From Streptococcus oralis (lineage in GTDB: Bacteria; Bacillota; Bacilli; Lactobacillales; Streptococcaceae), in the NCBI RefSeq assembly GCF_023611505.1, contig NZ_CP097843.1, forward strand, positions 496,001 through 560,000: DNA of 64,000 bases. Direction: 5' to 3'. The notes beneath the pieces are model-generated. The model was not told the origin of the DNA. It saw nothing but the letters and a program-made list of their open reading frames with translations, and did not search any database. The position numbers were made by a program, and so were the translations under genes. Positions 26,540 to 34,838 of this stretch are shown piece by piece. The number at the start of each line of letters is the position of its first letter. Within the stretch, counting starts at the first letter, position 1.

Positions 26540-26815
26540 ATGGGTGGAAAGATAAAATCTAGTACGATAGCAGCAGAGGCGGCTATTAATGAGTTGGTTG
26601 GGTATGACACGAGCGACAAGCAAAATCAGCAGGTAGAATTTTCATATACTTCTGAAATTGCTGGGATGGAAGCGGGACGTCTGGCCTGCAATCAAATGCT
26701 TCAGGCAGTTAGTGATTTTAGTTCAGCTATTTTGACCCAAGCAAATAAGTTTCCAGAAATTGCTCATAGGATTGAAAAACGTGATATAGAGCAAGCCAAG
26801 AGATGGAGTTACTAA
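26540..26815 (+). CDS. Lap1-like T7SS chaperone/co-secreted protein (DUF3130, TIGR04197 type)
   Basis: 91 aa, helical, WXG100-like in size. It begins with charged residues, then IAAEAAINELVGY, and ends with a long helix carrying MEAGRLACNQMLQAVSDFSSAI. This fits the TIGR04197/DUF3130 family, small partners encoded ahead of LXG toxins in streptococci and shown in S. intermedius to bind the LXG domain for type VII secretion. Family membership is from memory. The next gene starts 3 nt after its stop. Confidence 0.75.
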   Translation: MGGKIKSSTIAAEAAINELVGYDTSDKQNQQVEFSYTSEIAGMEAGRLACNQMLQAVSDFSSAILTQANKFPEIAHRIEKRDIEQAKRWSY

Positions 26816-26818
26816 GGA

Positions 26819-27175
26819 ATGGCAGATAGAAATGAAGAAAAGCGCTACAAACTTTGGCGAGAGATTGTCAAGATTGACGATAAGGAAGACAGACTCCGAG
26901 CAACTAAAAAGCAATATGAACAGCAGTTGACAAACTTTTACTCGGATATTCAGAGCATTCACCATCGCATGGTAAATCTATTGTCTCTCTCACCCAGTTC
27001 TCGTCAAGTGATAGAGCAAATCGAAAGTGATAATAGAACCATTCAGCGACAGGTCAACTCTTATGTAGAGGAGGAACTGGATGCCTTGGAAAAACAAACG
27101 AAGAAGGCTCGTCGGTCTTTCGATGAAGCCAGAGAAGAACTGATAGCGGAAAGGAATCGGCTACCATGGGAGTAA
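26819..27175 (+). CDS. Lap2-like LXG partner protein (DUF3958 type)
   Basis: 118 aa, highly charged and almost wholly helical; it probably forms a two-helix coiled coil (EEKRYKLWREIVKIDDKEDR, then KQYEQQLTNFYSDIQ). Size, composition and place between a DUF3130-like gene and an LXG gene match DUF3958, the second LXG-associated helical protein. Its last 10 nt overlap the toxin start, so the three genes are translationally coupled. Role inferred: chaperone or targeting partner for the LXG domain. Confidence 0.72.
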   Translation: MADRNEEKRYKLWREIVKIDDKEDRLRATKKQYEQQLTNFYSDIQSIHHRMVNLLSLSPSSRQVIEQIESDNRTIQRQVNSYVEEELDALEKQTKKARRSFDEAREELIAERNRLPWE

Positions 27176-28824
27176 AATACAGCGCACAAGAATCCCAAGA
27201 ATTGATTCAGGCCATGACCAACAACCTCCAAGTCGCAAATGAAGTCACGGACCGCTTATCTAGTGGATGTGACCACCTGATTTCCTCTTTAGACTCAGGT
27301 GAGCTGTCAGGAGCAGCCTACACAGCTGGCAAAGGTGTCTTTACAGACATTATCATCCCCAGCATCAAGAAGTTACAAGAAGCGGTAGGCGATATCCAAC
27401 TAGAGTTGACTTCCTACAAGAATGTGGATGCTCAGGTCTCTGGATATGGTGATTTGGACCTAGATCAGCTCAAGGAACTAAAAAAATTGAGGGAAGAGCA
27501 GTTAGCTATCGTAGAAGCTCAGATTCAAGTGAGGGAGAACTGGCTAAATCAAATCACGGACCTCTTTAGTCTCAATTGGGGGAAAGCCTTCTCTGAGAAG
27601 ACCATCCTCTACAATACCAAGTCTCAAATCGAGTCAGGTATTCAAGATTTGGATGACAAGATTGAAAAACTAGAATTTTTTATCTCACAGGTTTCCCAGT
27701 ATTTCAGTGATAGTTTAGAAGTCCTTAGCTTAGCGATTCAAGGAGCTACGCAACTAAGTAAAGTCATTGCCGATAGCGATGGCAACTACTATGCGGACGG
27801 TCTGGACATGAGCTGGGTACAGAAAATGAAGGATGTGAAGATTGAAAATCAAAAAATTGAGACATCCATACCAATAAGTAAAAAACAAAAATCTATTCAG
27901 ACACTCCAACAGCAATATGGGTTTAGTCAAACTGAATCAGAAATATTACTAAAATTATATGCTAGTATGGAAAAGAAATATGGGACTAAAAAAGCAAATG
28001 TAGAATTCTTTAAGATAGTTGCTTCATACTCTTATGGTGATAAATCTTATGGTGCTTGGCAAATTGTCGCTGGATTATATAGTCCAAACGGGGTGAATGG
28101 TATAATAGTTGGCATAAACGATAAACTGAAATACATACTGAAAAAATATGGATTAAAAGATTATGAAATTGATATGATTCAGAAAGCTATCCAGAATCAG
28201 CATAATTTTGCGAGATTGGAAAAGATTGAAGAGGGAGATACAAATGATGAGATAAAAGGTAAACTGAATTTAGCTTCTGAGAAAGCATATGGTCAAGGAA
28301 ATTATAATAAATTAGACGAGAAGCAGAAAGCAAGAGTAAGGGAATTGTTGTTTCAATTTGGAGGAACAATAGATTATTCTCATATGGCTGCCACCATTTC
28401 TGCACATTTTACAGATAATCATGGAATAGAAAATGAGGATGATTTAGCGGGTTGGCAAGGTGATGTAGCTGGTGCTATGGGAATTTCTCCTAGTCTTGGC
28501 AATGATGATTATCGTTCAGATTTAGATGCTGTTAATATTTACCACAAAATGAAGAACGGAGATAGTGTAGTTGATGTTACAAACTCATACTATGATAGTG
28601 TTGAGAGAACATCTGGCTATAGAGCTTATGAATTTGTTCAAAATATTGGAGAAGGGGATTACACGAAAGGAATGAAGAAATTAGAAGAAACTTATAAATT
28701 ATATGTCTCTTCTCATTCTAGTGAACAATCATCAACTTTCGAAAAATTTATGAATGCTATCCAACATTTCCAAAAAGATTTAGATAAACCCAATCCTTCT
28801 ATCGGAGAGCAAAATGTTAAATAA
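27166..28824 (+). CDS. LXG-domain polymorphic toxin, TelC-like C-terminus
   Basis: 552 aa. Residues 1 to about 225 form a helical LXG secretion domain (SAQESQELIQAMTNN, QEAVGDIQLELTSYKNVDAQ, LNQITDLFSLNWGKAFSEK). The C-terminal toxin domain begins near residue 227, where DNA becomes visibly AT-richer. It holds Asp-rich motifs: DYSHM (403-407), HFTDNHG with Asp417, EDDLAGWQGD (to Asp433), and NDDYRSDLDAVN (446-457). Length and Asp clusters recall TelC of S. intermedius, a calcium-dependent lipid II phosphatase secreted by the T7SS. That homology is from memory, not a search. The immunity candidate overlaps its 3' end by 11 nt. Confidence 0.8.
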   Translation: MGVKYSAQESQELIQAMTNNLQVANEVTDRLSSGCDHLISSLDSGELSGAAYTAGKGVFTDIIIPSIKKLQEAVGDIQLELTSYKNVDAQVSGYGDLDLDQLKELKKLREEQLAIVEAQIQVRENWLNQITDLFSLNWGKAFSEKTILYNTKSQIESGIQDLDDKIEKLEFFISQVSQYFSDSLEVLSLAIQGATQLSKVIADSDGNYYADGLDMSWVQKMKDVKIENQKIETSIPISKKQKSIQTLQQQYGFSQTESEILLKLYASMEKKYGTKKANVEFFKIVASYSYGDKSYGAWQIVAGLYSPNGVNGIIVGINDKLKYILKKYGLKDYEIDMIQKAIQNQHNFARLEKIEEGDTNDEIKGKLNLASEKAYGQGNYNKLDEKQKARVRELLFQFGGTIDYSHMAATISAHFTDNHGIENEDDLAGWQGDVAGAMGISPSLGNDDYRSDLDAVNIYHKMKNGDSVVDVTNSYYDSVERTSGYRAYEFVQNIGEGDYTKGMKKLEETYKLYVSSHSSEQSSTFEKFMNAIQHFQKDLDKPNPSIGEQNVK

Positions 28825-29446
28825 AATGAAAAACTATTATAAAAACAAACCAACTCAAGCTGTCTTAATGCTCATGGTTCTTATTTGGTCAGTATATGAG
28901 ATTGGTGCGACCAGTTTGGCAAGTAACTCTGCATTAACTAAGGAATTCATGCATAGTCGGTATGTTATAGTTTGGCCAATGGTAGATAAGAAAATGAAAT
29001 TATACCATTATGCGGAAGAATGGACTAATGACGTTTTAGTTGGAATTATGCATTTAGATTATGGAAATATTAGAATAACTAGTTTTCCTAAAAAATGGGG
29101 GAGTGAAGCTGAAGTATACTATACGCTGTCTGAAGATGAGTATGCTGATAGAGTATATTTTTTCTTAGACGAGCCAATTTCCAAAGCCTATATCAGCAGT
29201 TTAGAACAAAATTATTATTTGATTTCAAAGAATGCAGTTGCTATTAAAGAGGAAACAGGTAAGACGGTTGAGCAGTTAGTTCAAGAAGTGGGGAATGCAA
29301 GGAAAAACTTCTTATCAGCTCTTGGAAAGATGAAAATCTTTCGATTGGTCTATTTGGTTCTTCGTATGATAGTATTGTTGCAGTGTATCAGGTGGTCGGG
29401 TCAGCATAGAAAAAGGAAAGAGAACGAAATTTTGCAGAATGGATAG
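28814..29446 (+). CDS. Membrane-anchored candidate immunity protein (TipC-like)
   Basis: 210 aa. An N-terminal span (about 15-35, AVLMLMVLIWSVYEIGATSL) is followed by an external domain of about 130 residues with alternating strands (YVIVWPMVDKK, GNIRITSFPKKW, RVYFFLDEP), and a second hydrophobic stretch (FRLVYLVLRMIVLLQCI) near the C-terminus. It starts inside the toxin gene (11-nt overlap, GGAGAG ribosome site), the usual toxin-immunity layout. TipC, which blocks TelC outside the cell, is likewise membrane-anchored. Another frame of the same DNA near 29330-29523 also looks protein-like, so the C-terminus may be altered. Confidence 0.65.
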   Translation: MLNKMKNYYKNKPTQAVLMLMVLIWSVYEIGATSLASNSALTKEFMHSRYVIVWPMVDKKMKLYHYAEEWTNDVLVGIMHLDYGNIRITSFPKKWGSEAEVYYTLSEDEYADRVYFFLDEPISKAYISSLEQNYYLISKNAVAIKEETGKTVEQLVQEVGNARKNFLSALGKMKIFRLVYLVLRMIVLLQCIRWSGQHRKRKENEILQNG

Positions 29447-29584: not shown

Positions 29585-29594
29585 ACGACAAACC

Positions 29595-31153
29595 AGCGCA
29601 CAAGAATCCCAAGAATTGATTCAGGCCATGACGAACAACCTCCAAGTCGCAAATGAAGTCACGGACCGCTTATCTAGTGGATGTGACCACCTGATTTCCT
29701 CTTTAGACTCAGGTGAGCTGTCAGGAGCAGCCTACACAGCTGACAAAGGTGTCTTTACAGACATTATCATCCCCAGCATCAAGAAGTTACAAGAAGCGGT
29801 AGGCGATATCCAACTAGAGTTGACTTCCTACAAGAATGTGGATGCTCAGGTCTCTGGATATGGTGATTTGGACCTAGATCAGCTCAAGGAACTAAAAAAA
29901 TTGAGGGAAGAGCAGTTAGCTATCGTAGAAGCTCAGATTCAAGTGAGGGAGAACTGGCTAAATCAAATCACGGACCTCTTTAGTCTCAATTGGGGGAAAG
30001 CCTTCTCTGAGAAGACCATCCTCTACAATACCAAGTCTCAAATCGAGTCAGGTATTCAAGATTTGGATGACAAGATTGAAAAACTAGAATTTTTTATCTC
30101 ACAGGTTTCCCAGTATTTCAACGATAGTCTAGAAGTCCTTGGCTTAGCCATCAAAGGAGCCATGCAACTAAGTAAAATCATTGTTGATAGCGATGGTAAC
30201 TACTATGCGGGCGGTGTGGACATGAGCTGGGTGCAGAAGATGAAGGATGTGAAGATTGTTTCGCATGCCAAAAGAGATTTTCAAGACTCAGAAACTCGTG
30301 CCATCAATAAAGCTTCTAGGGATATGATGCTATCGGAAGATGGTGATGCCTACTATCGTGCCGAATTAAAAAGCGTTTAAAAGGTCACGACAAGTCCGAA
30401 TGGGATAAAATAATCGACGACTACAATCACACTCTTAAGATTGACGAAACAGGGAATATCATTGACATTTATCCATTTGAACAAGGCTATGTTGTTTCAA
30501 AAAACGGGAAATACGATGCGGACTATACTCATTTGGTTAACAAAAAGTTTGATGAACTAAAAGCACAAAACTTTGAAGCAAATTCAGTCGAATTTTGGAG
30601 TGGAGTAGCTCAAATATTCTCTGGATTGGGAGTTTACTTTGCGAGTGGTGCCCTCGAAGTCTTGAGTATAATGGCTGGTCCGCCAACAGCAGGGACAAGT
30701 ATCGTAGCTGGTACCGCAGCATCTGTATCAGGGGTACAATATGGAAATGTACTGATAGCTAGTGGAGCAGTAACTAGCTTATCAGCTATCACAAAGACGG
30801 CCTTACAAAATGGCGAAATTCAGGTTAATTATTCTAGCAACTACGACAGCTGGAAAGCTAATAAAAAGACAAGTATTACTCATGGGAAACAGATAGAAGC
30901 ACGTGTGAAAGGGAAAAATGTAAAAATCCGTGTTGATTCTGAACCACAGAGTGGTAAATTTCAAGTACAATCTGGAAGTGGGAAATCTAGCTATCCTCTA
31001 AACGAGCATCTAAGGATAGATAGAATAATAGGAAAAGATTCTATTGTAGACTGGGTAAATTCAAATGAAAGTTTAAGTAAACTCAGCAAGGGGGTTAGAG
31101 AGCAAATTATTGATAGAATTTGGAAAGCTTATCAAAGGTATTATGCGAATTAA
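29595..31153 (+). pseudogene. Second LXG polymorphic toxin gene, 5'-truncated and frameshifted
   Basis: 29595-30257 copies 27181-27843 of the first LXG gene without a gap but lacks its first five codons, so no native start exists; the next in-frame ATG (29616) has no ribosome site. The frame stops at 30380. Just before, an A5 tract (30368-30372) needs one more A to restore the frame RLKGHDKSEWDKIIDDYNH and onward to 31153. The restored protein would be about 520 aa: LXG domain, linker with D.SEWDKIIDDY, a hydrophobic Gly/Ala-rich segment (WSGVAQIFSGLGVYFASG, then PPTAGTSIVAGTAASVSGV), and an unrecognised basic C-terminal domain of about 90 residues. Slippage could restore some product, but the missing start argues for a pseudogene. 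Confidence 0.8.
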
Positions 31154-31167
31154 AACAGGAGGTATGC

Positions 31168-31785
31168 ATGAAGTTATATTTACAAGGTGATTACACCAAG
31201 ACTGATTTTTATGAAGAGTTTAAAGAAATAGCTCAAAAGATGTGGTTCAAAGAGCGAAAAGGAATTCCGCTCGATTTTTCCTATGCTTGGGATGAAGATT
31301 TACATTTGAATTTACGGTTGGATAAATTTAAATATAATGACGAACGTTGGGAGAGTGCAAATTTTAATACAAATATAAACCCTTGGAAGACATTTGAATA
31401 TGAAAACTTGACATTGGATCTAGAAAATTCTTATGAAAGCGATGGGCGTGAGAAAGGTGATTATTTGCGAATTATTTCTACTCATCTAGATATTTTAACG
31501 GTTGACAAGCGTGCGATGTATATTATGGCGATTGAGGTAGCATCTGCCATTGACGGTCAAATCAGCGAAGACGATAAAGAAACATGGCTGAGTATTGAAG
31601 AATTTAAAACGAAACATATAGACTTGCTGAATTTGACCTACGATGAAGCGGTTGATATTAGTTTGGAGGAACTAGAGATTATGGAGGCGGTTGATGAACC
31701 ACTTTGGGATGAATTACACAGAGGATGGGAAGAATACATCAAAATCCATGGTGAACGTGTTTATGACGATGAGGACTACGAGTGA
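31168..31785 (+). CDS. Candidate immunity protein, array member 1
   Basis: 205 aa, acidic, cytoplasmic (no signal or span). First of five tandem paralogues. Shared family pattern: an N-terminal strand KLYLQGDYTK, then MWF, LSYA-like, LDK..DERW, EKGDYLRI..THLD.LTVDKRA, a strongly conserved IAxAIDGQISEDDKETWL block, EEFK.KH, and a tail ending EYIKIHGE plus Asp/Glu. I do not recognise the family. A GGAGG site stands 5 nt before the ATG at 31168 (open frame from 31120). It begins 14 nt after the broken LXG toxin, the place of a cognate immunity gene. Confidence 0.75.
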   Translation: MKLYLQGDYTKTDFYEEFKEIAQKMWFKERKGIPLDFSYAWDEDLHLNLRLDKFKYNDERWESANFNTNINPWKTFEYENLTLDLENSYESDGREKGDYLRIISTHLDILTVDKRAMYIMAIEVASAIDGQISEDDKETWLSIEEFKTKHIDLLNLTYDEAVDISLEELEIMEAVDEPLWDELHRGWEEYIKIHGERVYDDEDYE

Positions 31786-32390
31786 GAGTTTATATTAAAG
31801 GCGATTATACAAAAAGAGTACCTTATGGTTATTTGGAACTAGCTGGAAAAATGTGGTTTCCAGAAGATGAGCAAGTTTCTTACTCAAATGCTGGGAATAA
31901 TGATGCATTAAAAGAGGATTTTTCTGTAAATTTATCCTTGAGGAAAAGTACTGCAGATAAGCGATGGTCTAGTGTTCCCCTAAAGGAAGGGGTACGAAGT
32001 CTCTTTTCACATATTAAGGAATGTATTGAGATAGAGTTTGAAGACGCGTTTGCTACAGATTATAATGAAAAGGGGGACTATCTTCGTATTTTAACTACCC
32101 ATCTAGAAGTTTTGACAGTTGATAAACGCGCCATGTACATTATGGCGCTTGAGATTGCAAAGGTCATTGACGGGCAAATTAGCGAGGATAATAAGAAGAC
32201 ATGGCTAACAGTCGAGGAATTTAAGAAAAAGCACGAGGCTATTCTATCTCTGACTTTTGAAGAAGCAAATGAACGAAGTTTGATTGAAATTCAAATGATG
32301 GATGTTGTAGACGACCCTCTTTGGGAGGAAGAAGCCACTCGTCGAAAAGAATATATACTAGCACATGGAGGCGATATCTCAGATTTATGA
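31782..32390 (+). CDS. Candidate immunity protein, array member 2
   Basis: 202 aa paralogue of member 1. It starts with GTG at 31782, overlapping the previous stop by 4 nt (GTGA), so translation is coupled. It keeps VYIKGDYTK, KMWF, EKGDYLRILTTHLE, LTVDKRAMYIMALEIA, and DGQISEDNKKTWL. The middle (residues 30-85) differs most between paralogues, as expected if that part decides which toxin is bound. Its tail is shorter and lacks the terminal Asp/Glu run. Confidence 0.72.
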   Translation: MRVYIKGDYTKRVPYGYLELAGKMWFPEDEQVSYSNAGNNDALKEDFSVNLSLRKSTADKRWSSVPLKEGVRSLFSHIKECIEIEFEDAFATDYNEKGDYLRILTTHLEVLTVDKRAMYIMALEIAKVIDGQISEDNKKTWLTVEEFKKKHEAILSLTFEEANERSLIEIQMMDVVDDPLWEEEATRRKEYILAHGGDISDL

Positions 32391-33019
32391 GACTTTACAT
32401 CAAAGGTGATTACACCAAAGAAATTCCATTTGATTACTTAGAGCTAGCTAAGAAAATGTGGTTTGAAACTTATCAAGGAGAAGGTATCCCTCTCTCCTAT
32501 TCTGGTTTTCTTCAAATCAGAGATGGGAATGATATAGCAATTCATCTAAAACTAGATAAACAGGATTATGATGAACGTTGGTTGCATGCCCCAATACAAG
32601 AAGGGATAAAATATCGCTTTTTTTCACAAATTGATGAAGAAGTAAATTTAGATTATGAAGATGCTTATGTAACAGATTTTCGAGAAAATGGAGACTGTTT
32701 GCGTCTTGCTTCTACTCATCTTGAACTGCTCACTCTTGATAAAAGAGCTTTCTATATCATGGCAATTGAGATTGCTACAATCTTTAGCGGACAAATTAGC
32801 GAAGATGACAAGAAAACATGGTTAACAATCGAGGAATTCAAGGAAAAGCACCAAGATATCTTATCTCTAACCTTTGAGGAGGCAAATGAGATGAGTTTGG
32901 AAGAAATTCAAACGATTGACGCTATTGACGATCCCATCTGGGAAGAATTGGATAAGAAGCGTGAGGAGTACATCCAAATCCATGGTGAACGAGTTTATGA
33001 CGGTGAGGAAGACGAGTGA
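32387..33019 (+). CDS. Candidate immunity protein, array member 3
   Basis: 210 aa paralogue. The ATG at 32387 overlaps the previous stop (ATGA); I rejected upstream in-frame starts because the family begins RLYIKGDYTK. It keeps KMWF, LSYSGF, LDKQDYDERW, DFRENGD, and LTLDKRAFYIMAIEIA. In the core block it reads FSGQISEDDKKTWL where others have IDGQISEDDKETWL. It ends EYIQIHGERVYDGEEDE. Confidence 0.74.
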   Translation: MRLYIKGDYTKEIPFDYLELAKKMWFETYQGEGIPLSYSGFLQIRDGNDIAIHLKLDKQDYDERWLHAPIQEGIKYRFFSQIDEEVNLDYEDAYVTDFRENGDCLRLASTHLELLTLDKRAFYIMAIEIATIFSGQISEDDKKTWLTIEEFKEKHQDILSLTFEEANEMSLEEIQTIDAIDDPIWEELDKKREEYIQIHGERVYDGEEDE

Positions 33020-33631
33020 AATTATATCTTAAAGGTAACTACGAAACTAGTATATACCAAAAATGTATGGAATATCCTTGGAAAATGTGGTTCAAGGAAC
33101 GTAAGGGAGTGAAAGTTAGTTTTTTATGCATTTGATGATAATTTTTATTTGAGTTTAACTCTAGATAAATTTTCTTCAAATGATGAGCGTTGGGGAAAGG
33201 CTGATTTTAGAATAGGAAAAGACTCTTGGGCGACTTTTAAGCGTGAAAATTTAAATTTAAATTTTGAAGATTCCTATGAAAGTGATGGACGAGAAAAAGG
33301 AGACTATCTACGAATCATCACGACTCATAAGGATATTCTAACGGTTGATAAGCGAGCTCTCTATATCCTGGCGATTGAGGTAGCATCTGCCATTGACGGT
33401 CAAATCAGCGAAGATGACAAAGAAACATGGCTGAATATTGAAGAATTCAAAACGAAACATGCGGATCTATTACATTTTACCTACGACGAAGCGGTTGATA
33501 TTAGTTTAGAAGAGATAAAGGCTATGAAAGCCATTGATGAGCCCCTATGGGAAGAATTGGATAGGAAGCGCGAAGAGTACATCCGAATTCATGGAGAAGT
33601 GGAGTTGGATGACGATGAGGAAGACGAGTGA
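33016..33631 (+). pseudogene. Candidate immunity protein, array member 4, frameshifted
   Basis: A GTG at 33016 overlaps the previous stop and reads KLYLKGNYETSIYQK..., then MWFKERKGV, and stops near 33135. A run of six T's (near 33119-33125) is one T too long; removing one gives SFYAFDDNFYLSLTLDKFSS and continues in frame to 33631 with the full family C-terminus (DGQISEDDKETWL...EYIRIHGE). The 3' part is almost a copy of member 1. A downstream restart might make a 160-aa fragment. Confidence 0.75.
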
Positions 33632-34257
33632 GACTATATATCAAAGGTGATTACACCAAAGAAATTCCATTTAATTACATGGAACTAGCGAAAAGGATGT
33701 GGTTTGAGGAAAAAGATGGAATAGAGCCGGATTTGTCGTATGCTGGGTATCTAGAACTACCAATTGAGAAACTTTCTGTTCACTTAGAATTAGACAAGAA
33801 AACTCATGATGATAGATGGAAAAGTGTTCAGATTAAGGAAGGGATAAAATATGATTTTTTATCCCATAAGTCAGAATATATACAGCTAGACTATGAAGAT
33901 GCTATCATGTCGGATTTTCGTGAGAAAGGTGAATGTTTAAGAATTGCTTCTAAGCATCTTGACCTTCTCACTGTTGATAAACGTGCTTTCTATATTATGG
34001 CCATTGAAATTGCGACTGCTATTGATGGTCAGATTAGCGAAGATGATAAAGAGAGCTGGTTAAGTGTGGAGGAATTTAAAAATCGACATGAGGATATCCT
34101 TTCGATGAGTTATGAAGAAGCTAATGAGCTGAGTTTGGAAGAAATTCCCTTTTTGGACGATGTGAGGGACCCAGTTTGGGAAGAAGATGACCGTAGAAAT
34201 GAAGAATACATCAAAATCCATGGCGAGCCAGTTTATGATGACGAGGAAGATGAGTAA
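33628..34257 (+). CDS. Candidate immunity protein, array member 5
   Basis: 209 aa paralogue, starting with GTG at 33628 in a 4-nt overlap (GTGA). It has RLYIKGDYTKEIPFNYMELA, RMWFEEKDG, LSYAGYLE, LTVDKRAFYIMAIEIA, IDGQISEDDKESWL and the tail EYIKIHGEPVYDDEEDE. It is closest to member 3 at both ends but differs in the middle. Confidence 0.74.
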   Translation: MRLYIKGDYTKEIPFNYMELAKRMWFEEKDGIEPDLSYAGYLELPIEKLSVHLELDKKTHDDRWKSVQIKEGIKYDFLSHKSEYIQLDYEDAIMSDFREKGECLRIASKHLDLLTVDKRAFYIMAIEIATAIDGQISEDDKESWLSVEEFKNRHEDILSMSYEEANELSLEEIPFLDDVRDPVWEEDDRRNEEYIKIHGEPVYDDEEDE

Positions 34258-34310: not shown

Positions 34311-34838
34311 ATGTCAGATAAAGTAAAACAGTTTAAGTGGTTGATTGTATTGTTTTTGTTTCTGTTAGCAATTCCTTCATATTTTGCTTACAATCATTTC
34401 CGACAATCTAGTACTTTAAAAGAAGCCTTTGAGAAAAATGAAAGAATTGAAGCTCTTCATCATTTAATGGCATCAGGAAAATATGCGTCTGACATCCGAA
34501 AAGAAGGCTATGTCGTTCCTCCTGATGGAGCTATTCGTTTGGATGGAGGAATTGACTCCATAGAGATAAAAGGAGACATCGATTTGGATATCTCAAATCC
34601 GGGACAGAATGGGGTTACTGCTTATTTTAGAATAGAGATAGATGGTAAAATAACTAGTGTACTATATGAATTGGATAAGAACTTTGATTTAGTTTCTAGC
34701 GCCTATTTTCAAATAAATGAAAAAAATATAAAAGAGAGTGTGACTATCCCCCAAGCCGAAGAAGAGCGACTATTAAAAATTGTTCAAAAAGAGCTTGAGG
34801 CTTTCATGCAAAAGATGTATCAGACTTTGTATGGCTAG
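34311..34838 (+). CDS. Membrane-anchored protein, unknown function (possible immunity protein)
   Basis: 175 aa. An N-terminal span (about 9-28, WLIVLFLFLLAIPSYFAY) is followed by a helical stretch (TLKEAFEKNERIEALHHLM) and a soluble external domain with strands (IRLDGGIDSIEIKGDIDLDI, TAYFRIEIDGKITSVLYEL). I do not recognise the family. Topology and place in a toxin-immunity island suggest an immunity protein against a toxin acting outside the membrane, as TipC does. An AGGAGAAGAAACTA site precedes the ATG. Confidence 0.6.
   Translation: MSDKVKQFKWLIVLFLFLLAIPSYFAYNHFRQSSTLKEAFEKNERIEALHHLMASGKYASDIRKEGYVVPPDGAIRLDGGIDSIEIKGDIDLDISNPGQNGVTAYFRIEIDGKITSVLYELDKNFDLVSSAYFQINEKNIKESVTIPQAEEERLLKIVQKELEAFMQKMYQTLYG

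What the first reader, a model, noticed from the sequence alone, without database searches (positions are those of the whole stretch)
31168..34257. Five tandem coupled paralogues of an unrecognised acidic family: a candidate immunity array
Five genes of about 205 aa, each joined to the next by a 4-nt GTGA or ATGA overlap, share strongly conserved ends (GDYTK; DGQISEDDKETWL; EYI.IHGE) but differ in the middle. They follow directly on a broken LXG toxin. Keeping and duplicating immunity genes after losing the toxin fits protection against neighbours that carry toxin variants. I cannot name the family.
Basis: partly seen in the sequence, partly recalled or inferred. Interest (0 to 1): 0.8.

Follow-up and report, generated by a model that had tools for sequence, protein, structure and literature searches.

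The report
Immunity gene array outliving its toxin
A mouth streptococcus that seems to have lost its protein-weapon machine and carries a broken toxin gene still keeps a row of related genes that very probably each neutralise a different version of that toxin made by neighbouring bacteria.

Summary
The array is real: five tandem paralogues at 31168-34257, each joined to the next by a 4-nt GTGA/ATGA overlap; copy 4 is frame-broken, so four are intact. No credible Pfam, NCBIfam, PADLOC or PDB-sequence match names the family. It is very probably the immunity family of one LXG-type toxin C-terminal domain, also unnamed. In 22 streptococcal loci the gene directly behind the toxin covaries with the toxin domain (Mantel r 0.78, p 1e-4), not significantly with the toxin's N-terminal part (r 0.14, 19 loci); the last gene does not covary. 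The clearest misfit carries a remnant of the expected gene. In two further families of the order (Enterococcus among them) a family gene again lies directly downstream (7 of 7 loci). Arrays rarely repeat a subtype (4 repeats, 16.2 expected). The window genome shows no EssB, EssC or EsxA; 27 of 29 family-bearing streptococcal genomes have EssB. Best reading: an immunity array kept after weapon and machine were lost, assembled by recombination rather than by duplicating one gene. New detail: the acidic tail usually encodes the ribosome-binding site of the next copy. The kind is known (esaG, tsaI, tipC; Vibrio arrays); the pair appears new. The toxin's activity is unknown.

The parts
26540..26815 (+). 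small partner gene 1 (Lap1-like, 91 aa) of the intact upstream toxin cassette
   Evidence: weak TIGR04197 match, 18.3 bits, below cut-off 26; same position in other loci
26819..27175 (+). small partner gene 2 (Lap2-like, 118 aa)
   Evidence: position and homologues in other loci; DUF3958 only at E 0.11
27166..28824 (+). intact LXG-type toxin with a different C-terminal part (552 aa)
   Evidence: open frame; DNA 97% identical to the broken toxin over 665 bp (27180-27844 vs 29594-30258), no further long match; no PF04740 match
28814..29446 (+). 210-aa protein, presumed immunity of the intact toxin
   Evidence: position; about 93-94% identical homologues in L033, L045, L046, L091, L092; no credible family match
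29594..30380 (+). N-terminal piece of the broken (presumably displaced) toxin
30533..31153 (+). C-terminal piece of the broken toxin with a complete toxin domain (about 30794-31150)
   Evidence: domain profile E 3e-57, residues 88-204
31168..31785 (+). immunity copy 1 (type 6), presumed cognate of the broken toxin; AGGAGG ribosome-binding site in front
31782..32390 (+). immunity copy 2 (type 1)
   Evidence: type 1 is the first gene behind the toxin in L039, L044, L047, L087, L093, L101
32387..33019 (+). immunity copy 3 (type 2); residues 28-100 are 80% like the type 3 gene behind the L052 toxin
   Evidence: type 2 itself is never seen first
33016..33631 (+). immunity copy 4 (type 7-like), frame-broken
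   Evidence: 39-codon piece then stop, the rest in another frame; type 7 is first behind the toxin in L100; open piece 87-95% like type 7 genes
33628..34257 (+). immunity copy 5 (type 5)
   Evidence: type 5 is first behind the toxin in L033, L035, L089; 96% identical to the L033 gene
34311..34838 (+). 175-aa protein with an N-terminal hydrophobic segment, possible further immunity family
   Evidence: homologues in two or three tandem copies behind arrays in L033, L035, L046, L092; no credible family match

Best explanation
The family is the immunity family of one toxin C-terminal domain (about 118 aa, conserved core RVDxEP...QxQxGxGK, variable last ~50 residues) carried by LXG-type proteins of the type VIIb secretion system. 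The gene directly behind a toxin is its cognate immunity; the further genes neutralise other variants of the same domain. In the window strain an incoming toxin cassette (26540-29446) displaced the older toxin by recombination in the near-identical N-terminal coding part. The older toxin decayed, the secretion machine is absent, and four of five immunity genes stay open: defence against T7SSb-bearing neighbours without the weapon. Shown: tandem array, covariation of first gene and toxin domain, scarcity of repeated subtypes, broken toxin, no EssB/EssC/EsxA found, ribosome-binding tails. Inferred: export by T7SSb, binding and neutralisation, cytosolic site of action, displacement as the order of events, protection in the mouth.
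For: 24 of 30 streptococcal loci examined have the family directly behind the toxin. Toxin domain vs first gene: Mantel r 0.78, 22 loci, p 1e-4; N-terminal toxin part vs first gene r 0.14, p 0.06 (19 loci); last gene r 0.09, p 0.19 (18 loci). Strongest between toxin tail and immunity residues 28-100, r 0.84; 15 representatives under 90% toxin-domain identity r 0.77 (L098 left out). The clearest misfit, L098, has a remnant of the expected gene directly behind its toxin: first 32 codons 91% identical, then the last 10. Two other families of the order: family gene directly downstream in 7 of 7 loci; 28 pairs together r 0.86, L098 left out. Repeats within 21 arrays 4 vs 16.2 expected, 0 of 20000 shuffles as low. 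Window copies have dN/dS 0.10-0.23 against nearest same-type genes, 13 comparisons, one more saturated. EssB in 27 of 29 family-bearing genomes and 77 of 255 others; the two without it, G000 and G099, gave no EssC beyond an FtsK-like hit and no EsxA, and in both the toxin is broken.
Against: No toxicity or neutralisation has been measured. Neither protein has a fold match that names a function. Covariation could partly reflect linkage: the second gene also covaries (r 0.36, p 5e-4) and the N-terminal part covaries with the toxin domain (r 0.37, p 7e-4). Leave-one-out matching succeeded in 13 of the 16 loci that could be tested; the window and L100 had no near toxin. Mantel p-values treat loci as exchangeable. 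Copy 4 is broken. Pairwise dN/dS does not isolate the window lineage. The upstream 552-aa toxin is intact although no machine was found, so machine loss has not removed all toxins; three of the 22 toxin loci in genomes with EssB are broken too.
Confidence: 0.87

Rival explanations
1. The extra copies are leftovers of recombination between conserved gene ends, with no present protective value; only the first gene matters.
For: Copy 4 is broken; many loci contain fragments, and L099 is a graveyard of pieces. Conserved ends favour recombination, as reported for esaG and tipC (PMC9484751; seen: outline with abstract, section 18 and Discussion).
Against: Low dN/dS (0.10-0.23), scarcity of repeated subtypes (4 vs 16.2), and the same subtypes serving as first genes elsewhere.
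Confidence: 0.12
2. The genes encode chaperones or secretion partners of the toxins, not immunity.
For: They sit in the toxin operon; Lap1/Lap2 partners of LXG toxins exist (PMC9600955; seen: passages).
Against: Known partner genes sit upstream and their products bind the LXG domain (PMC5555719, passages), whereas these sit downstream and covary with the C-terminal domain (r 0.78), hardly with the N-terminal part (r 0.14). Several different copies without a machine fit immunity better.
Confidence: 0.04
3. The pair is TelA/TipA of Streptococcus intermedius under another name.
For: TelA is an LXG toxin with a cytoplasm-acting C-terminal domain without homology to characterised proteins, next to tipA (PMC5555719; seen: passages).
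Against: tipA is reported as generally single copy (PMC9484751, section 18). The TelA and TipA sequences were not in hand, so this was not tested.
Confidence: 0.1

Closest known systems
esaG and tsaI strings of Staphylococcus aureus (immunity to EsaD and TspA)
   Same: Strings of non-identical tandem immunity genes next to a T7SSb toxin; conserved blocks allow recombination in esaG (PMC9484751).
   Different: The array proteins gave no match to any Pfam family of these (the family names are recalled); TsaI is a predicted polytopic membrane protein.
tipC arrays of streptococci (immunity to TelC)
   Same: Streptococcus, up to 15 paralogues at one locus, conserved 5' and 3' regions with a variable centre (PMC9484751 section 18).
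   Different: TipC has a probable lipoprotein signal and faces outward. The array proteins start without an evident signal sequence, are strongly acidic and do not match the TipC model, which finds a TipC elsewhere in the same genome at 241 bits.
Vibrio cholerae T6SS orphan immunity arrays (sequential displacement)
   Same: New effector-immunity pairs replace old effectors while old immunity genes remain (PMC5361080; seen: outline with abstract and start of the text).
   Different: Other secretion system and families; here the older toxin is caught broken behind the newer one, and no machine was found in the genome.

Membership tests
Immunity family of a polymorphic toxin | gene directly downstream of the toxin domain across different loci | tested here: met
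   24 of 30 streptococcal loci examined; 7 of 7 loci in two other families
Immunity family of a polymorphic toxin | covaries with the toxin domain more than with the carrier part | tested here: met
   Mantel r 0.78 (22 loci; 0.83 in the 19 with an N-terminal part) vs 0.14
Immunity family of a polymorphic toxin | neutralises the toxin | not testable with these tools
   needs a co-expression or binding assay
LXG toxin family (PF04740) | Pfam match over cut-off | tested here: inconclusive
   window toxins: no match; homologous toxins L036 (28.8 bits) and L042 (29.1) over the cut-off 26.5, L086 (26.2), L050 (23.8) and L044 (15.9) below it, L047 none
TipC (NF033863) | match to the TipC model | tested here: not met
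   no match at E up to 1 for four intact window copies and the open piece of copy 4; positive control 241 bits
EsaG (DUF600; name recalled) | Pfam match | tested here: inconclusive
   no such match at E up to 1; no positive control run
TsaI | polytopic membrane protein | tested here: inconclusive
   window copies 1, 2, 3, 5 have 40-56 acidic residues of 202-210 and a compact predicted fold; no hydrophobic segment seen by eye, no transmembrane predictor was run
TelA/TipA | sequence homology | not tested
   sequences not in hand
T7SSb machine in the window genome | EssB, EssC and EsxA present | tested here: not met
   no EssB, only an FtsK-like hit for EssC, no EsxA like that of G032; the other components were not searched

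The most novel reading that the evidence does not exclude
The array is a weapon-free, plug-in defence chain. Each gene's conserved acidic tail is written in codons that make the ribosome-binding site of the next copy, so a member dropped in by recombination is at once translated and passes coupling on. Such chains let commensals that have lost type VII secretion live among strains that still have it.
Probability: 0.45. Interest if true: 0.72.

Novelty: new member of a known kind. Interest (0 to 1): 0.62.

Why it matters
It identifies by genetics, though not yet by experiment, both halves of an apparently undescribed toxin-immunity pair found in streptococci and in two other families of the order. 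It predicts which immunity subtype answers which toxin variant, so specificity becomes directly testable in ordinary laboratory co-expression. It also gives a natural case of defence kept without the weapon. The ribosome-binding tail suggests how such arrays can grow and shrink without losing expression.

Tried and rejected

Rejected: array by recent duplication of one gene (48-72% identity to copy 1, each copy of another subtype). TipC membership. A search for wider relatives from the Kroppenstedtia member gave two proteins only.

Rows dropped: L034, L036, L038, L040, L042 and L043 as the same loci fetched again; L051 and L053 (fragments only); further short family fragments listed; L035 and L096 from the Mantel tests (incomplete toxin domain); L095 from the repeat test (same subtype order as L090); L098 from the runs where stated. 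The weak toxin-domain match in G858 and two short toxin-domain pieces in G732 were not followed.

Literature: searches listed no paper whose title or abstract start describes this pair; beyond those listings only the papers were opened, in part. The claim that the pair is undescribed rests on these searches only.

Full report
WHAT IS THERE. The window lies in a one-contig 2.06-Mb genome whose same-genus relatives are Streptococcus; named loci with the family are S. oralis, S. cristatus and S. parasanguinis, and the closest named locus (96%) is S. oralis. Five tandem paralogues occupy 31168-34257, each overlapping the next by GTGA or ATGA. Identity to copy 1 is 48-72%. Copy 4 is frame-broken. 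The matches in this genome are all in this array. In front lies a broken toxin gene in two open pieces, the second with a complete toxin domain. Further upstream is an intact 552-aa toxin with two partner genes and a 210-aa protein. The two toxin genes share 97% DNA identity over 665 bp of their N-terminal coding part, and no long match beyond. This is what displacement by recombination would leave; it is an inference.

DISTRIBUTION. 29 of 284 Streptococcus genomes carry the family. In the class-level sample 12 of 398 genomes match; only three lie outside the genus, with E 6e-13 to 2.5e-9. I examined 30 loci of 28 of the 29 genomes (G017 had only a fragment): 102 full-length members in 29 of the loci, 13 subtypes at 22% distance. 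Of the 30 loci 24 have the toxin directly in front (19 intact, 5 broken: window, L035, L088, L096, L098) and 6 do not (L037, L049, L090, L094, L095, L099). L037, L090, L094 and L095 have flanking genes of the same sizes as loci that do carry the toxin, and tblastn with four toxins found no toxin remnant in them; L049 has an LXG-type gene with another C-terminal part.

COGNATE PAIRING. The toxins share a C-terminal domain attached to different N-terminal parts. Across 22 loci, identity of toxin domains and identity of first genes correlate (Mantel r 0.78, p 1e-4). For the 19 loci with an N-terminal part, that part against the first gene gives r 0.14, p 0.06, and against the toxin domain r 0.37. 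For 18 loci with more than one full gene, the first gives r 0.84, the next 0.36, the last 0.09. The signal is strongest between toxin tail and immunity residues 28-100 (r 0.84); with 15 representatives it is 0.77. Same-subtype pairs average 86% toxin-domain identity (29 pairs, lowest 55), different-subtype pairs 54% (202 pairs, highest 87); both extremes involve L098. L098 has directly behind its broken toxin a remnant of the expected type 3 gene. Leave-one-out matching succeeded in 13 of 16 testable loci; two of 18, the window among them, had no near toxin. The misses are L052 and L098, each other's nearest, and L097, whose nearest toxin is of another subtype. Ten of 13 subtypes occur directly behind a toxin; types 2, 8 and 12 do not.

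OTHER FAMILIES OF THE ORDER. In the order-level search the toxin domain matched 14 of 395 genomes: 8 streptococci, 5 genomes of two other families, and one weak match in a 2199-aa frame that I did not follow. The rest are unnamed. All seven loci taken from them have a family gene directly downstream of the toxin domain (E 3e-39 or better for a search of the locus alone). L131 shows toxin, two immunity genes, a 75-aa orphan toxin piece, then a third immunity gene. With six pairs and one orphan-piece pair added and L098 left out, 28 pairs give r 0.86. Distant relatives in three genomes outside the order lie near a pre-toxin-TG protein (L102, just over cut-off), near an LHH nuclease with a SUKH gene (L104), and near DUF4176 and sub-threshold WXG100 and pre-toxin genes (L103).

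ARRAY LOGIC. In 21 arrays (89 genes) 4 subtype repeats occur, 16.2 expected, none of 20000 shuffles as low. Window copies show dN/dS 0.10-0.23 against the nearest same-type genes (13 comparisons, one more saturated). Between subtypes, residues 21-110 differ more at the amino-acid level (pN/pS 0.51) than residues 111-190 (0.26; a random fifth of the pairs), which fits a recognition surface. Some members are mosaics: L045_5 has a first half 90% like a type 7 gene and a second half 91% like a type 10 gene.

MACHINE LOSS. EssB (PF10140) occurs in 104 of 284 genomes: in 27 of 29 with the family and 77 of 255 without (Fisher p 3e-11; not corrected for kinship). The exceptions are the window genome and G099. 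In both, EssC of G032 finds only a 30% FtsK-like hit and EsxA of G032 finds nothing, while G032 itself has both. In both the toxin is broken. Near the place where G032 carries the machine, the window genome has instead a large surface protein gene, an LXG-type toxin and a TipC gene. Broken toxins occur in 2 of 2 loci without the machine and 3 of 22 with it. Whether the window lineage lost the machine or never had it was not resolved.

RIBOSOME-BINDING TAIL. Of 73 full-length genes followed by another copy, 60 have a Shine-Dalgarno core 4-11 nt before the overlapping start; resampling synonymous codons gives 24.2 on average, at most 36 in 500 runs. The first Glu codon of a terminal DEEDE is GAG in 27 of the 27 genes that end so, while GAG makes 28% of Glu codons in gene bodies. 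Type 1 (0 of 14) and type 13 (0 of 1) are exceptions. Of 29 genes not followed, 17 still carry the core. The conserved end is therefore kept at the DNA level too. Recombination through a shared 3' block could also spread it.

MECHANISM AND LIMITS. By eye the proteins lack a signal or membrane segment; they are acidic and face a basic toxin domain (19-23 basic, 13-16 acidic residues in five examples). This suggests cytosolic neutralisation of a cytoplasm-acting toxin. The toxin residues RVDxEP...QxQxGxGK, kept in 26 or 27 of 27, may be an active site; that is a guess. No fold match names an activity.

PRECEDENT. Strings of T7SSb immunity genes are known: esaG, tsaI and tipC (PMC9484751), and sequential displacement was proposed for Vibrio (PMC5361080). 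The kind is therefore known; this family, its toxin domain, the retention without a machine and the ribosome-binding tail are what is added here, as far as the searches show.

Noticed in passing
Possibly pilin-fused polymorphic toxins; only the listing of one literature search was seen.
   Followed up: partly
window 34311-34838; L033, L035, L046, L092: A ~175-aa protein family with an N-terminal hydrophobic segment occurs in up to three tandem copies behind the arrays; a possible second immunity family.
   Followed up: no
window 26540-29446: An intact LXG-type toxin cassette in a genome in which no EssB, EssC or EsxA was found.
   Followed up: partly
L112 15795-18066: Another LXG-type toxin with a single TipC immunity gene (241 bits) elsewhere in the window genome.
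   Followed up: partly
L099 5187-16100: A graveyard of broken family members on both strands in genome G235.
   Followed up: no
L137 4351-5541: An orphan toxin-domain piece followed by a 320-aa protein that by its length looks like a double immunity protein.
   Followed up: no
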